Assembly (NCBI GenBank): GCA_029261035.1
Contig: JAJDCD010000015.1
Coordinates: 1 to 6,929, forward strand
DNA: 6,929 bases
From: Candidatus Omnitrophota bacterium
GTDB lineage: Bacteria > Omnitrophota > Omnitrophia > Omnitrophales > JACROU01
Reading direction: 5' to 3'
Shown here: piece by piece, positions 1 to 6,929 of the stretch
How the letters are laid out: each line of letters starts with the position of its first letter
How positions within the stretch are numbered: position 1 is the first letter of the stretch
Made by a program: the position numbers and the translations under genes
The notes under the pieces: generated by a model
Told to the model about the DNA's origin: nothing
The model's input: only the letters and a program-made list of their open reading frames with translations
The model's database searches: none

Positions 1-3000
1 AATACAGCTGTTACTTTTACTCTCACAGGAGACTTGTCTCACACAAACGGAAGTCTTAGCAACAGTGGAACCATCACATTAGATGTCACTTCAACATCTC
101 ATGACTTTTCTCAATCAACTGTTGCCGCATTCCAAATAAAAGTTTTTCTAGATAACGCTCTTAAAATTATTAACCTAACTTCCGATTTTCATATTGATGC
201 TGCTGGAGGTGATCTTAATATTTCTGCAGGAACTTTTAATGTCGGAACCAATGGTTTTATCATGAATGATAACTTTACTCTTTCTGGCATTGGAATATTT
301 AATGCTACAAACGCTACAGCTCTTGATTTCAACACAAGTCCTTTTGTAATGACTGGAGGTACTTTTGATGCACCCAATCAAGCATCAGGTACCACTATGT
401 TTATTTCGACAAACTCCTTCTCCATTACAGGAGGTGCCTTTAATGCTAATTCAGGGACTGCTAATTTTGATGGCTCCACAGCTACTATAACAACTCAAGT
501 AGGTGCAACTCCTGTTAGTTTTCATCATGTCATTTATTCCCAAAGTTCTGGAACTAAAACACATACCACCAGCATGAATATTACTGGAGACCTCACACTC
601 ACAGGCAATGCTGTTAATGCCAATACGGCTGTTACTTTTACTCTCACAGGAAATTTAGATCATGATTCTGGCCTTTTTTCTCAAAATGGTAATATTACTC
701 TAGACATCACTTCTGGAACACACACTTTCACCCAATCAACAACCGCTAACTTTGAAGCACAAGTTCAGGTTCATACAGCAGGTGCTATTGTAAATTTAAT
801 TTCTGATTTTAGGTTTGCTGGAAACGATGGACAGCTCAGCATTTCTACGGGCACCTTTAATGTAGGAGCTAATGATTTTGAAGCAGATGACAACTTTTTA
901 CTATCTGGAACAGGACTTTTCGATGCAACAACAGCCACAAGCTTAAGATTCGACGGAACAGTCAATATCTCTGGAGGTACTTTTAATGCTCCTAGCGCTA
1001 CCATACCCGACTTCAACAACTCCTTCACTGCAACTGCTGGAACAATCAATCTTAGCTCCGTTTCCACCACCTTTTCAAATGCCGTTACCATGGCCGCAGC
1101 CATTACATTAAATCATAATAACGGAATAATCTCTTTCGATGGTAGCAGCACACATACGATCGATATTGATGGCATCAATTTATTTAACGTTAATTTTAAT
1201 GCTACCAGCGGAACAAGGTCTATAGTAAAAAGTTTCAATGTTTTAGGAGACCTATCCATTATTAATGGTCAGACGGTAAATGCAGGTGTAGCTTCTACTA
1301 TTACATTAACAGGTAATTTTTCAAAAACTGCAGGTTCTTTTGGTAATGGTAATTTGACATTACGCTTTGTTGGAGATACAAGCCATAATTTCTCCAACAC
1401 CGTTAATGATATTGATGCCCAAATTTTACTCGATGATGCTAATGAAACACTCACCTTCACCTCTAATGTTATTTTCAGTAGCTCCGCATCGATCACCATC
1501 TCTGGAAGCAATACTGTTTTTGCTGTTGGAAATAACACTATAGATGTAAATACCTCATTTACAATTTCTGACGGACTCGTCACCGTAGGCACTGGAAGCT
1601 TAGACCTTTCAGAAACCTATACTCAAACGGGTGGAATTGTTAATGAAATCAACTTCAATGGAACTAGTAATAAAGTTATTAGACAAGATGCCGGATCAAT
1701 TGTTAACGCTACCTTTTCTGCTACGAGTGGCGACAGAAAAATTGCCACTATCGGAAATAAATTTATCATCACTGGAAATCTCACAAAACTAGACAATGGA
1801 GACATTAGATCAGACGGAGTCGCCGTTACAATGGAAATCGGGGGTAATTACTTTCAATCTGGAACCGGTGTCGTTGGAGATGTCTTCCTTACAATGGAAT
1901 TCACAGTAGCAGCACATACGATTGATCAAGATGCTGGAAGTTTTTCCGGACAATTACTAATAGATCAAGCTGGAGAATCTATTAGCCTTATCGATAACTT
2001 CTTTATCACCTCTATAGGTTCTTTAACAATTCAAAACGGAAGCTTCTCTACCAGTAGCAACACGCTTGAAATAGATGGAGCAACAAATATTTCTGGCGGA
2101 ACTTACAATGGAAACAATGGAGACAGCGATTTCGATGGTAGTGTTAATATAACCGGAGGGACCTTCATCGCCAGCTCTGCAACAACTCGTTTTTCTAATA
2201 CTCTTACCATTGCTGCTGCATCTACTTTTACACACAATAGCGGAACTGTTCTTTTTGATGGCAGCACCACCAACGACGTTGACATTGATGGGAAAAACTT
2301 ATTTCACCTTACTTTTAGCGCTTCAAGTGGCACAAAATCTATTTTGAAAAGTTTTAATATCTTAGGGGACTTATCTGTCATCAATGGGCAAACTGTAAAT
2401 GCAGGAGTCGCATCTACCCTTTCATTAGCTGGTAATTTCTCAAAGACATCAGGCTCTTTTGGTAATGCCAATCTCACGTTACGTTTTATTGGAGACACGA
2501 ATCATAATTTTTCTGAAACTGCTAATGATTTTGATGCTCATTTTTTATTGGATGATGCTAACGAAACAGTAACCTTTACATCCAATGTCAGATTCAACTC
2601 CACATCTTCTGTCACGATTTCAGGAAGCAACACTGTTTTTGCTGTTGGAGATAATACAGTAGATGTTGATGTTCCTTTCACCATATCTAATGGACTTGTT
2701 ACCGTAGGAACTGGAAGCTTAGATCTCTCTTCAACATTTAACCAAACAGGAGGTACTGTAAATGATATTAATTTTAATGGTACCGGTACTATAACACTCA
2801 CTCAAGAAGCTGGGTCTATTGGCAATGCTATATTTTCTCACACCAGTGGAAATCGTATTATTGCTGTAAATGGAAATAGCTTTACTCTTACTGGCAACTT
2901 TTCAAGAACAAGCAATGGTCCTATCGGATCTGGTGGACTCGCAGTAACAATGCAAATTGGTGGTAATTACTTTCAAGCAGGTTCTGGAAACGTCGGAGAT

Positions 3001-6000
3001 GCCACCCTTACCTTTAATTTTACAGCTGCCGCTCACACCATTGATCAAGACTCTGGAAACTTTGCAGGACAACTCGTAATTGATGAAGTTGGTGAATCTA
3101 TTAGCCTTATTGATAACTTCTCTATCACCTCTGTAGGTTCTTTAACTATTCAAAATGGAAGCTTCTCCACTAATAGCAACACTCTTGAAATTGATGGAGC
3201 AACAAATATTTCTGGTGGTACTTATAACGGAAATAATGGAGACAGTAATTTTGATGGTAGTGTTAATATAACCGGAGGGACTTTCAGCGCCAGCTCTGTA
3301 ACAACTCATTTCTCTAACAATCTTACCATTGCTGCTGCATCTACTTTTACACACAATAGCGGCACTGTTCTTTTTGATGGTAGCAGTACCACTAATGTTG
3401 ATATTGATGGGAAAAACTTATTCAACCTTACTTTTAGTGCTTCAAGTGGTGTAAAGTCTATTTTGAAAAGTTTTAATATCTTAGGGGATTTATCTGTCAT
3501 CAATGGGCAAACTGTAAATGCAGGAGTCGCATCTACCCTTTCATTAACGGGTAATTTCTCAAAAACTGCTGGAGCTTTTGGTAATGCTAATTTGACATTA
3601 CGTTTCGTTGGGGACACCAATCATAATTTCTCAGTCACTTCTGGAGATATTGACGCTCATTTTTTATTAAATGATGCTAACGAAACGGTTACTTTCACGT
3701 CTAATGTCCAATTCAGTTCTACATCTTCAGTCACAATTTCAGGAAGTAACACTGTTTTTGCTGTCGGAGATAATACTATAGACATCAATGTTCCCTTCTC
3801 TATTTCAGATGGTACGGTCACTGTAGGAACAGGAAGTTTAGACGTTTCTCAAACATATACTCAAACGGGCGGTGTCGTCAATGCTATCAATTTTAATGGT
3901 AGTACCACAATTACAATCACACAAGAAGCTGGGTCTATTGGCGATGCTACTTTCGCTTCTACAAGTGGGACTCAAACACTCGCTGTCAATGGAAATGACT
4001 TTATTATTACAGGTAATTTTACCAAAACTGCTAATGGTACATTAATCTCTGCAGGAGTCGCATTAAACCTTAATGTGGGAGGTGACTTTTCTATTTCTGC
4101 TGGAACACTAGGACAAACCTCCCCTACTTTAACAATCACAGTAAAAATGACAGGTGCTGGGACACAAACATTCTCCCACACAGGAGGTAATTTTAGAACT
4201 CACTTTGAAGTAGCTAAAACAGGTGGCGAAGTAACACTTCTAACAGCTCTCGTCCTTCAAGAAAGTAGAAACTTAACCATTACTTCGGGTGTACTTAGTT
4301 TAGCTGGTCAAAACCTAACACTGGGAACTTTTTCTACTTTTTCAAATGACGGCACTCTAAAACTTCAAGGAACAGAAACTCTTTCTCCTGTTCCTGCATC
4401 ATTCCCTCAAGACATAAACTCAGGAACTTGGGAGTTTACTGGAAATGGTGATTCTAACCCCGATACGTTTACAATTTTTGACTTTGGAACCACGGACTAT
4501 TTTAATGTAACTTGGAACCCAACAGATGCCAACGACACATTACAACCTACAAACTCCCTAATTATTGCTGGTAGTTTTGTACAAAGCGGTGGAACTTTTA
4601 ATCAAAATTCTCAAGACTTTTCTGTTAATGGTCCGAACACCTTTCAACTGGACTCCGGTGTCTTTAACCAATCTAATATCATTACTGTTAATGGGAATAT
4701 GGTTATTAATGGTGGAACCTTTAATGGCTCTAGTCATAACATTGATATTAATGCAAACACACCAGCTCGTGGAGACTTTGATCAAAATGGCGGTGTCTTC
4801 AATTCCACATCAGGCCTTATGACCTTAGAAGGCTATTTTGACCGTTCGGGTGGTGGAACGTTTAATCACAACAACGGAACTGTTGAACTAAATGGAACAC
4901 TCCAGTTTGTATTAGGCTCTACCACTTTCAACAATTTTACAAAATCTGTTGTCGCAACAGATGACCTCACCTTTGGTTCTGGCACCACTCAAACTATTCT
5001 GGCAACAACAACACTCACAGGTGTATCCGGAGATCTTCTTCGACTTCGAAGCAACAATCCTGGAACTCAATGGGCCTTTGACCCTCAGGGAACACGTGTC
5101 ATTAATTTTGTTGACGCTCAAGACTCTAACAACATCAATGTAACCATCATTACTCCAGGAGATTCTACAAGTTCAGGAAATAACACAAACTGGCAGTTCC
5201 CTGTAAGTATTACTGGAAACGCTTTCAATTCTTCTTTAGGCGCTTTAGGTGCTGGCATTGAAGTCGCAGTCTCCATCAATGGCGGCAATATAGTTACAAC
5301 AGATGATACAGATGCAACTGGCGCTTATGAACTTACGGGTCTTACCTTATCTAGTGGAGATGTTGTTACATTGTTTTTTAACAACGAATCCCCTAATGGA
5401 GTTACCGTATTTATAGCGCCATCCACAGGAGTCGCAGGAGTTGCCATTGTTCAAAATCGTCTGACATTACGCCACGAAGGAGGCGGAGCTATCACAAATG
5501 CAAACCTTGCAACGGCATTTACGACTGTTGATCCAGGGACAGCGGATATCACCAGCACATTCAGTATGGCGGCTAATGTACTGAATATGGTAGGTGGAAC
5601 AACTCTGTCCATTCCATCGGGGCACACATACACTCCGGGAGACACTGTTAATGCACAACACATGATTATGGATGGAACTTTGAATGTCAATGCGAACACC
5701 GTAGATGTCAACCAAACATATACTCAAGGAAGCGGCGCTGTTAATGTGACATCCGGAACGTTATTGGTTGCTACTACATTTGTTCAAAGCGGTGGTACCA
5801 TAGACTCAATTACCTTTGATGGTGGAACTGCGAACCTAACACAAAATGCTGGAACAATAACCGACATTAACTTTACCGCTACCGGTGGAACAAAAAATAT
5901 TCTTAGCAACTTTACTATTCTTGGAAATGTTACTGTAGCCAACACTAACAACACCATCGCTGGAACCGGCGGAGTCCGCACAATGACTGTTTCTGGGAAT

Positions 6001-6929
6001 TTTAGCAAATCTCAAAATGGTACTTTTGGAAATTCAAATCTACGAATTGCCTTTACAGGAGATACCACACACTCTCTAACTCAGACAGGAGGCATCATTG
6101 CAGCCCAGTTCCGCATTGACGAGCCTGGGGAAACCGTTACTCTTGCATCAAATTTCACAATTAACAGTACGGGATCTTTTACTCTTGGGGGAACTGCAGA
6201 TGCAACTTCAAGTCTAAATATTTCCACCTTCGCTTTTCAACTCGACGGGGTTTACACTCATTCTTCAGGAGTTTTTAATGGCAATACGGGCAATGCTGAT
6301 TTTAATAGTACATACATTTTCTCCGGAGGGACTACAACAGCCCCTTCTGGAAATATGAACTTTTCTAGTACTACTACATTTTCAAATATCGGGGCAGGAG
6401 CCACTTTCAATCATAACTCAGGTACAGTTATTTTTGACGGGGCGGGAGCTAGCATAAACCCAGATGGAGCTATTTTTAATGATGTTAACTTCAGCAGCAC
6501 AAGCAGCACCAAAACATTCACTGGTAATATGACCATCTTAGGAAATCTGCTTGCCAATTTAACGAACTCTAATGTTACTGCTAGCTCTTCAGCTATAACA
6601 GTTAATCTGGAAGGTAACTTCTCTCTAACTTCTTCCTCTGGCATTCTTCAAGTTTTTACACTTAATTTTACTGGAACCAACGCTCAATCTTTTACTCATT
6701 CTGCGGGCACTCTCTCCCCTAACATTCGGATCAACAAAGCTTCTAACACTCTAACTCTTTTGACTAACGCATTTTTATCCGCAGGTAGCCTTACCTTTGA
6801 CTCAGGAACTCTCGCTCTTGGTGCTCAAGTATTTGATACTAATGTTATTTACACTCACAATGATGGTACAGTAACTCACACCTCAGGCCGCATCTTAGCC
6901 TCTTCCGCTTTCACTCAAGCTGCTGGAAG
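1..6929 (+). CDS. Partial giant repetitive surface/secreted protein (adhesin-like, predicted beta-solenoid), both ends outside window
   Basis: Frame +1 is open for 2309 codons with no stop. There is no credible start, since the frame is already open and in mid-repeat at base 1. The product is rich in Gly, Thr, Ser, Asn, Asp and Phe, has no Cys, and has four Trp (codons at 4429, 4513, 5071 and 5191). Short rungs with a Gly-Gly-Thr-Phe-Asn core recur every 19-26 residues, as expected for a beta-helix or solenoid stalk. Residues 1-1460 are long tandem repeats, about 1461-1940 are mixed modules including one Ig-like domain (about residues 1734-1820), and about 1941-2309 are repeats again. Known of such proteins: cell-surface or secreted stalks used in adhesion or as surface layers. 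Inferred: export to the cell surface. The signal peptide and any anchor or autotransporter domain would lie outside the window, so the secretion route cannot be told. No catalytic motif is seen. That the frame is coding is near certain; the function is only a class assignment. Confidence 0.93.
28..648 (+). repeat. Repeat unit 0: short (207-residue) unit at the left edge of the array
   Basis: This unit begins at a 'TGDLSHT' strand and ends before the matching 'TGNLDHD' at 649, a period of 621 bases. It contains strands such as 'LNISAGTFNVG' and 'MTGGTFDAP', which match 'LSISTGTFNVG' and 'ISGGTFNAP' of the next unit. A half-module signature, 'YSQSSGTKTHTTSMNITGDL', starts near 529. The unit is about half the length of the following ones because only one half-module separates its start from the next unit. 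The preceding half-module, if the array continues, lies upstream of base 1. Confidence 0.8.
649..1842 (+). repeat. Repeat unit 1: long (398-residue) unit, diverged copy with extra coil
   Basis: This unit aligns along its whole length with the two units that follow. Shared landmarks are 'SFDGSSTHTIDIDG' (1132-1173), 'KSFNVLGDLSI' (about 1228-1260), 'INGQTVNAGVAS', 'TGNFSKTAGSFGN', and 'SGSNTVFAVG' (1501-1530). From about 1066 to 1842 it is in exact 1119-base register with unit 2. Upstream of that it is 25 residues longer in total, including a 63-base (21-residue) block at about 1003-1065 that units 2 and 3 lack. In a 60-base sample (1189-1248 against 2308-2367) I count 17 mismatches, so this copy is clearly older than the unit 2/3 split. 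Confidence 0.85.
1843..2961 (+). repeat. Repeat unit 2: 1119-base (373-residue) tandem copy
   Basis: This unit runs from 'GNYFQSGTG' at 1843 to just before 'GNYFQAGSG' at 2962. Order of strands: 'HTIDQDAGSF', 'ESISLIDNF', 'GSLTIQNGSFS', 'NISGGTYNG', 'NITGGTF', 'FTHNSGTVLFDG', 'KSILKSFNILGDL', 'GNFSKTSGSFGN', 'RFIGDTNHNF', 'SGSNTVFAVGD', 'VGTGSLDLS', 'QEAGSIG'. It holds two half-modules, with signatures at about 2308 and about 2827. It is highly similar to unit 3 at the DNA level: 2101-2220 and 3220-3339 differ at 13 of 120 positions by my count, and 2371-2427 is identical to 3490-3546. Confidence 0.92.
2962..4080 (+). repeat. Repeat unit 3: 1119-base (373-residue) tandem copy
   Basis: This unit is collinear with unit 2 at every landmark checked: 'FDGSVN' (2131 to 3250), the 'LFDG' Phe (2254 to 3373), 'GNFSK' (2431 to 3550), and unit end to unit end (2962 to 4081). 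The offset is 1119 bases each time and no net indel was detected. Many differences are C/T changes at third codon positions, so the protein sequence is better conserved than the DNA. Its second half diverges more (for example 'ATFASTSGTQTLAVNGNDF') as it runs into the degenerate unit beyond 4081. Confidence 0.92.
4081..4380 (+). repeat. Degenerate partial repeat unit 4
   Basis: The segment starts in register with units 2 and 3: 'GGDFSISAGTLG' replaces 'GGNYFQAGSG' exactly 1119 bases later. It keeps the general strand order, with 'TQTFSHTGGNF' in place of 'HTIDQDSGNF' and 'NLTITSGVLSLAG' in place of 'SLTIQNGSFS'. Sequence similarity then fades. After 'DGTLKLQGTET' the repeat gives way to unrelated modules near 4381. 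I infer an old copy, or one trimmed where the next cassette joins. Confidence 0.65.
4381..4560 (+). other. Protein module: Trp-containing 'GNGDSNPDT' segment
   Basis: This segment is non-repetitive within the window. It carries 'SGTWEFTGNGDSNPDTFTI', 'DFGTTDYFNVTW' and 'LQPTNSL', and two of the four tryptophans. From memory, related strings (Thr-Trp/Val-Glu-Tyr, Gly-Asp-Gly-Asp, Asp-Tyr-Tyr-Asn-Leu) recur between rungs in other large repetitive bacterial surface proteins. It probably forms a few strands linking two solenoid stretches. No function can be assigned beyond structure. Confidence 0.5.
4561..4920 (+). repeat. Short-rung ladder: five 'GGTFN'-type coils
   Basis: Cores appear at 4588 (GGTFNQ), 4654 (SGVFNQ), 4711 (GGTFNG), 4789 (GGVFNS) and 4852 (GGTFNH). 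The spacings are 66, 57, 78 and 63 bases, that is 22, 19, 26 and 21 residues. This spacing fits one turn of a beta-helix per repeat. The last rung runs into 'HNNGTVELNG', a relative of the 'HNSGTVLFDG' strand of the long units, which ties this ladder to the same repeat superfamily. Confidence 0.75.
4921..5199 (+). other. Protein module ending in 'SGNNTNW'
   Basis: Visible pieces are 'FNNFTKSVVATDDLTFGSG', 'LTGVSGDLLRLRSN', 'TQW' (5065-5073), 'DPQGTR' (5080-5097), 'VDAQDSNNINVT', and 'SGNNTNW' (5173-5193). From memory this ordered set is typical of a module repeated in giant surface proteins of uncultivated bacteria, where it precedes an Ig-like domain as it does here. Its role is presumably structural. 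It contains the last two tryptophans of the window and a relatively high share of the positively charged residues (Leu-Arg-Leu-Arg-Ser). Confidence 0.55.
5200..5520 (+). other. Ig-like beta-sandwich domain (CNA-B / carboxypeptidase-regulatory-like) with 'RHEGGGAITNANL' tail
   Basis: The domain opens with 'VSITGNAFNSSLGALGAG', then 'IEVAVSINGG', then the hallmark 'TDATGAYELTGLTLSSGD' (5308-5361). The pattern Thr-Asp-x-x-Gly-x-Tyr-x-x-x-x-Leu is characteristic of CNA-B and carboxypeptidase-regulatory-like folds. It is followed by 'VTLFFNN', 'GVTVFIAPSTG' and 'RLTLRHEGGGAITNANL' (5458-5508). This is the only such domain in the window. In surface proteins these sandwiches act as rigid spacers or stalk segments. 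I cannot identify an isopeptide-bond triad with confidence. The fold assignment rests on the motif only. Confidence 0.6.
5521..5820 (+). other. Linker region between Ig-like domain and second repeat block
   Basis: This region contains 'NVLNMVGGTTLSIPSGHTYTPGD' followed by rung-like 'GTLNVNANTVDVNQTYTQG', 'GAVNVTSGTLLV' and 'FVQSGGTIDSITFDG'. The 'Gly-His-Thr-Tyr-Thr-Pro-Gly-Asp' stretch reads as a turn connecting the sandwich to a new solenoid. The 'TYTQ' and 'FVQSGG' strings echo those near 1618 ('TYTQTGG'), 3856 ('TYTQTGG') and 4579 ('FVQSGG'), so this is where the repeat grammar resumes. Confidence 0.5.
5821..6480 (+). repeat. Second repeat block: diverged half-module
   Basis: The signature 'INFTATGGTKNILSNFTILG' begins at 5866. 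The segment then follows the strand order of the half-modules in units 1-3: 'VSGNFSKSQNGTFGNSNLRI' corresponds to 'LAGNFSKTSGSFGNANLTL', 'FTGDTTHSLTQ' to 'FIGDTNHNFSE', and 'DEPGETVTLASNFTINSTG' to 'DDANETVTFTSNVRFNSTS'. It ends with 'FNHNSGTVIFDG' (6409-6444), the analogue of 'FTHNSGTVLFDG'. Similarity is obvious in protein but weak in DNA, so this copy is older than the 1119-base units. Confidence 0.75.
6481..6929 (+). repeat. Second repeat block: further half-module, cut by window end
   Basis: The signature 'VNFSSTSSTKTFTGNMTILG' starts at 6484, 618 bases (206 residues) after the previous one. 'VNLEGNFSLTSSSG', 'NFTGTNAQSFTHSAGTL', 'NKASNTLTLLTNAFLSAGSL' and 'YTHNDGTVTHTSG' follow in the expected order. 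The frame is still open at base 6927, so the repeat block and the gene continue beyond the window. Confidence 0.72.

What the first reader, a model, noticed from the sequence alone, without database searches (positions are those of the whole stretch)
1..6929. Window sits wholly within one giant gene; minimum 2309 residues with no end in sight
Frame +1 has no stop from first to last codon and is mid-repeat at both edges. An uninterrupted frame this long and this repetitive points to a giant surface or predation-type protein that could be several times longer. A caller that requires both a start and a stop would miss it and instead report small spurious ORFs.
Basis: partly seen in the sequence, partly recalled or inferred. 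Interest (0 to 1): 0.75.

Follow-up and report, generated by a model that had tools for sequence, protein, structure and literature searches.

The report
Interior of a giant two-partner-secreted filament
The window is a middle slice of one enormous gene in an uncultured Omnitrophota bacterium, very probably encoding a secreted, needle-like surface protein; four genes of this kind take up at least 5.6% of the assembly, and their front ends show which export machine probably carries such giant proteins out of the cell.

Summary
Confirmed: the window is a complete 6,929-bp contig (G000:C7) open in frame +1 throughout (2,309 aa, no stop), mid-repeat at both ends. It is one fragment of a set. The same 2.70-Mb Omnitrophota assembly holds four N-terminal giant fragments (2,654 to 7,494 aa), each with one hydrophobic signal-like segment and a Pfam TPS domain, four C-terminal fragments, seven wholly open internal contigs including the window, and four TpsB (ShlB/POTRA_2) transporters. 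Together the fragments are about 50,000 aa (150 kb, 5.6% of the assembly), about 12,500 aa per gene. The window most likely continues the C21 N-terminal fragment: 5-bp end overlap, frame kept, and the only 3' end in exact repeat register with the window's start. That puts a TPS domain upstream and a TpsB gene just before the gene. The window is cysteine-free, has a 20-residue period and is modelled as an all-beta solenoid (pLDDT 82.5) resembling the TPS adhesin EtpA. Best reading: giant TpsA exoproteins forming rigid adhesive filaments. Giant ORFs in Omnitrophota are known; the export route and sizes above the reviewed TpsA range (100-650 kDa) are what is added. A predatory role is untested.

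The parts
1..6929 (+). Interior of a giant TpsA-like exoprotein gene, 2309 codons, open at both ends; contig G000:C7
   Evidence: translate and ORF list; own-genome search shows the contig is 6929 bp; no Cys and low Trp; no hydrophobic segment above the KD cut-off
1..626 (+). Beta-helical repeat copy of about 208 aa, continuing in exact register from the 3' end of contig C21 (C21 tail 67% identical to it over 206 aa; 5-bp end overlap AATAC; frame kept)
1072..4066 (+). About 2.7 tandem copies of a 373-aa beta-helix unit (1119 bp; copies start at 1072, 2191 and 3310)
   Evidence: AlphaFold model of copy 2 (2131-3390), all beta, pLDDT 82.5
4078..5790 (+). Cassette of about 570 aa (residues 1360-1930) that recurs in most sibling giant fragments: beta-helix, an 'LRSNNPGTQWAFDPQG...DSNN' module at about residue 1680, then a compact domain of uncertain fold
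   Evidence: blastp to the giant set, about 31-51% identity; motif positions; no Pfam family; AlphaFold confident only for the first part of 4501-5880
5791..6927 (+). Further beta-helix-like repeats running off the contig end; downstream neighbour not identified
   Evidence: translation; no in-register start accepted for the 3' end

Best explanation
The window is the middle of a giant TpsA exoprotein of a two-partner secretion (type Vb) system in an Omnitrophota bacterium. Shown: the open frame; sibling fragments with N-terminal TPS domains and signal-like segments; TpsB (Omp85/POTRA) genes in the same assembly, one of them just upstream of the C21 N-terminal fragment; 20-residue periodicity; absence of cysteine; a beta-solenoid model. 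Strongly inferred: the window is the continuation of C21N, giving a gene of at least 4,961 aa. Inferred mechanism: the chain is exported to the periplasm by Sec, its TPS domain docks on the TpsB POTRA domains, the unfolded chain threads N terminus first through the TpsB barrel, and it folds progressively outside into a rigid beta-helix. At about 4.8 A per 20-residue coil (textbook geometry) the window is about 55 nm and an average full gene product about 300 nm. The recurring compact modules would project as binding sites. Most likely function: a long adhesive filament for contact with other cells or surfaces.
For: Four TPS domains over the Pfam cut-off on giant frames of 7494, 7145, 2654 and 4459 aa (Pfam on C21N 2.3e-21 and C18R 1.7e-21). 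Four ShlB plus POTRA_2 transporters. Four C-terminal fragments and seven internal contigs, 50,053 aa in all. C21N to C7 is the only exact in-register join to the window's start, frame kept, 5-bp overlap. Period 20 is the top short period in the window (z 6.2) and in several other fragments. AlphaFold beta-solenoid; VIA-align match to EtpA, Z 14.0 over 400 residues, and to the FHA secretion domain, Z 10.2. Each N-terminal fragment has one strong hydrophobic segment, at its signal peptide. Review describing TpsA as repeat-rich beta-helices folding at the surface: PMC5422565.
Against: The join C21 to C7 rests on a 5-bp overlap and repeat register, not on a shared 141-mer; extra repeat copies could lie between. 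C21N has NNNG where TpsA proteins usually have NPNG (only C18N has NPNG). Foldseek gave no E-value below 0.001, and many unrelated beta-helices score similarly. The second model is poor in the compact domain. No expression or long-read data. The binding partner is unknown.
Confidence: 0.8

Rival explanations
1. The window belongs to a giant surface protein exported by another route (type II or pilus-associated secretion), sharing only the beta-helix modules with the TPS proteins.
For: Genome G018 of the same order has a 9236-aa frame with window-like repeats (E 2.3e-38) but no TPS hit in that genome; its neighbouring frames look like type II or pilus assembly genes by eye only.
Against: In the window's own genome all four N-terminal fragments of this repeat class carry TPS domains, there are as many TpsB genes as TPS domains, and C21N is in exact register with the window.
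Confidence: 0.12
2. Assembly artefact: collapsed or chimeric repeats stitched into an artificially long frame.
For: Contigs end within repeats; some ends share exact 141-bp words (C25, C13 and C8; C17 and C23), so repeat number and order are not resolved.
Against: The window's own repeat copies are only 71-77% identical, so they are not collapsed copies; about 150 kb stays in frame; changes concentrate at third positions.
Confidence: 0.05
3. Giant TpsA with an active weapon role (contact-dependent toxin or lytic enzyme) against prey cells, as proposed for giant proteins of predatory Omnitrophota. This is a rival on function, not on identity.
For: Published view of giant ORFs in the phylum as predation or adhesion factors (PMC10066038); [quoted passage not shown]
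Against: No toxin or hydrolase Pfam domain in the pieces scanned. No VENN motif ahead of a C-terminal domain; the single VENN lies in the C21N TPS region.
Confidence: 0.15

Closest known systems
Two-partner secretion exoproteins (TpsA), e.g. Bordetella filamentous haemagglutinin and ETEC EtpA, with FhaC/EtpB-type TpsB
   Same: Signal-like N terminus, TPS domain (PF05860), long imperfect beta-helix repeats, separate Omp85-type TpsB with POTRA domains
   Different: Much longer: fragments of 725-753 kDa have no end, and the mean is about 12,500 aa per gene, against 100-650 kDa in the review PMC5422565. NPNG not kept in three of four. Four copies in a 2.7-Mb genome of a different phylum
Giant ORFs of Omnitrophota, e.g. 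the 39,678-aa protein of Ca. Velamenicoccus archaeovorus (PMC10066038)
   Same: Same phylum, open frames over 20 kb, few annotated domains, proposed extracellular or adhesive role
   Different: The LiM protein is reported with 42 transmembrane helices; here few hydrophobic segments outside the signal peptides. Two-partner secretion is not mentioned in that paper's main text
Type Va autotransporters, e.g. antigen 43, UpaB
   Same: Beta-helix passenger fold
   Different: No barrel domain found in the ends of four C-terminal fragments; transporter encoded separately

Membership tests
Two-partner secretion exoprotein (TpsA) | N-terminal TPS domain (PF05860) | tested here: met
   Four giant N-terminal fragments over the cut-off, including C21N, 77 bits against 33.5. 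The window itself is interior; met for its gene only if the C21 join holds
Two-partner secretion exoprotein (TpsA) | Sec signal peptide | tested here: met
   One strong hydrophobic segment near residue 42 (C21N), 16 (C8N), 20 (C18N), 21 (C18R) by Kyte-Doolittle; no dedicated signal-peptide predictor was available
Two-partner secretion exoprotein (TpsA) | NPNG motif in the TPS domain | tested here: inconclusive
   NPNG only in C18N; NNNG in C21N, NTDG in C18R, NTAG in C8N
Two-partner secretion exoprotein (TpsA) | Cognate TpsB (ShlB plus POTRA_2), usually adjacent | tested here: met
   Four TpsB genes; the one on C21 ends about 350 bp upstream of C21N on the same strand. Pairing not tested
Two-partner secretion exoprotein (TpsA) | Repeat-rich right-handed beta-helix | tested here: met
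   20-aa period, beta-solenoid model, EtpA match Z 14.0; handedness not checked
Type Va autotransporter | C-terminal 12-stranded barrel | tested here: not met
   No autotransporter domain in the last 825 aa of C8C, all 779 aa of C3C, the last 425 aa of C15C or the last 399 aa of C24C; which of these ends the window's gene is not known
RTX adhesin (type I secretion) | RTX nonapeptides | tested here: not met
   0-1 GGxGxDx(hydrophobic) matches per fragment; no RTX Pfam hit in the pieces scanned
CDI system (CdiA) | VENN-type motif followed by a C-terminal toxin domain | tested here: not met
   No VENN in C-terminal fragments; no toxin Pfam domain in their scanned ends

The most novel reading that the evidence does not exclude
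Some Omnitrophota display megadalton TpsA filaments on the order of cell length (several hundred nm) through ordinary TpsB pores, making two-partner secretion one main export route for the phylum's unexplained giant proteins and extending the size limit of that pathway.
Probability: 0.45. Interest if true: 0.65.

Novelty: new variant of a known kind. Interest (0 to 1): 0.5.

Why it matters
Giant ORFs of Omnitrophota are described as having few annotated domains and unclear function. Their interiors say little, as this window shows, but the ends do: TPS domains plus TpsB partners predict the export route, surface location and fold. TPS domains occur in 88 of 285 sampled genomes of the phylum, and the two longest frames in that table are in this genome. 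Megadalton substrates would test how far an energy-independent outer-membrane pore can go.

Tried and rejected
Pfam on the whole window gave only sub-threshold DUF4357 and CadC_C1 hits, taken as chance. NCBIfam, PDB sequence search and TRF found nothing. C25 as the window's downstream neighbour (4-bp overlap GAAG) was rejected: about 12 residues out of register. C17 and C23 as allelic variants of one locus were rejected: they share 141-bp ends but are only 78% identical over the first 0.67 kb, with no reported match beyond it except the shared end. Other known surface modules were sought in six large pieces and only a GEVED domain in C8N was found.

Full report
Observation. Frame +1 of the window is open from the first to the last codon, 2,309 residues. 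The other frames hold 75 to 307 stops, and from base composition the chance of no stop is about 1e-62. The residue make-up is Thr, Gly, Ser and Asn rich (15.4, 11.7, 11.2, 10.8%), with no cysteine. A 373-aa unit recurs about 2.7 times at 1072-4066; differences between copies lie mostly at third codon positions. The window is contig C7 of a 2,700,877-bp assembly in 26 contigs, estimated 94.8% complete. The contig, not the gene, ends at the window's edges.

Surroundings. Searching the own genome with the window protein found related giant frames on ten other contigs. Reading contig ends gave: four N-terminal fragments, C18N 7,494, C8N 7,145, C18R 4,459 and C21N 2,654 aa; four C-terminal fragments, C24C 4,221, C15C 4,005, C8C 2,129 and C3C 779 aa; and seven contigs open end to end, C25 6,787, C7 (the window) 2,309, C14 2,261, C17 2,245, C23 1,213, C2 1,188 and C13 1,164 aa. 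The sum is 50,053 aa, 150 kb, 5.6% of the assembly (small end overlaps not subtracted). Two contigs, C5 and C6, read as N and could not be examined. That there are four genes is an inference from the equal counts of N-terminal and C-terminal fragments.

Export signature. The four N-terminal fragments carry the Pfam TPS domain over its cut-off, and each has one strong hydrophobic segment at the signal-peptide position. A search with the ShlB family finds four TpsB-type transporters, which also carry POTRA_2 domains. On C21 the TpsB gene (8311-10050, minus strand) lies about 350 bp upstream of the giant frame on the same strand. No autotransporter barrel or other known C-terminal domain was found in the ends of the four C-terminal fragments.

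Which gene the window belongs to. Each 3' end was compared with each 5' start through homologous positions inside the set. C21N to C7 is the only pairing in exact register (offset 0 at three homologous places), with a 5-bp exact overlap (AATAC) and the frame kept...GSNVDANTAVTFTLTGD... The same test recovers C25 or C13 to C8C (141-bp overlap), C14 to C15C (40 bp) and C2 to C3C. The join gives at least 4,961 aa. No downstream neighbour of the window was found. Additional repeat copies between C21 and C7 cannot be excluded.

Fold. A 20-residue period is the strongest short period in the window (z 6.2) and in several siblings, as expected for beta-helix coils. An AlphaFold model of copy 2 of the 373-aa unit, with an alignment of the three in-window copies only, is all-beta with mean pLDDT 82.5 and pTM 0.76, though the five models range from 50.9 to 82.5. 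Foldseek gave no significant E-value. VIA-align places it with beta-helix proteins, among them the TPS adhesin EtpA (Z 14.0, 400 residues, rmsd 5.1) and the FHA secretion domain (Z 10.2); phage tailspikes and polysaccharide lyases score similarly, so the fold is supported but a specific relationship is not. A model of 4501-5880 is confident only in about its first 170-200 residues.

Distribution. Ten of 39 relatives and 88 of 285 sampled genomes of the phylum have a TPS domain. The two longest TPS frames in that table are this genome's; others reach 6,610 and 6,251 aa. Window-like repeats occur in 8 of the 39 genomes of that search. The phylum is Omnitrophota: contigs of same-order relatives have exactly the lengths of named records (13,482 bp MHFM01000043.1; 22,810 bp JAQTRP010000025.1; 27,212 bp JAHFHF010000045.1).

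Comparison with what is known. Giant ORFs over 20 kb are reported as common in Omnitrophota, with few annotated domains and a proposed adhesive or predatory role, and a 39,678-aa example with 42 predicted transmembrane helices (PMC10066038). The word 'two-partner' does not occur in that main text, and full-text searches linking Omnitrophota to haemagglutinin or TPS showed no paper on this link; the library lacks preprints and most subscription papers. A review gives 100-650 kDa for TpsA proteins (PMC5422565); here incomplete fragments already reach 725 and 753 kDa.

Mechanism. By analogy with characterised TPS systems: Sec export, TPS-domain recognition by the TpsB POTRA domains, threading N terminus first, and vectorial folding outside. 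At about 4.8 A per coil (textbook value) the window would be about 55 nm long and an average gene product about 300 nm. An adhesive role is the most likely function, by analogy with FHA and EtpA; it is not shown. Predation is possible from the phylum's biology but has no support in the sequence.

Noticed in passing
G000 contigs C9 (L112, L129), C11 (L114, L131), C16 (139-151 kb, 206-215 kb, 530-541 kb, right end), C3 right end (L138), C15 left end (L139), C26 both ends (L140, L142): A second, unrelated class of giant repeat ORFs (charged repeats such as RGGQERRGQYSQSAFRALREG and GDGTLYWNGKEYE), frames up to 5105 aa in the search table, N termini with signal-like segments, also ending contigs. 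The RGGQERR type was found only in the own genome and one other (G001) among the relatives searched; no Pfam family of note.
   Followed up: partly
G018:C51, L055-L057, joined positions 14900-42607: A 9236-aa frame with window-like repeats but no TPS domain hit in that genome, beside genes that look like type II or pilus assembly genes by eye.
   Followed up: partly
G000:C8:21735-24659 (L022:1735-4659): A 975-aa frame with SdrD_B and carboxypeptidase-regulatory-like domains between the two C8 TpsB genes and the giant C8N gene.
   Followed up: no
G000:C8 N-terminal giant frame (P0002): Contains a run of repeats like 'LSSGENNIGAATIDTQGNAAYFGTG...KIDL' that look like a beta-propeller by eye, and a GEVED domain by Pfam.
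   Followed up: partly
G000:C1 (L036): 4099-bp contig whose ends share 55 bp with each other and with the right ends of C20 and C21, so a genomic repeat junction is more likely than a plasmid.
   Followed up: partly
G000:C18:382861-387951 (L054:14910-20000): The C18R giant fragment ends in an array of units of about 315 bp (105 aa) at roughly 71-79% identity, which probably stopped the assembly.
   Followed up: no
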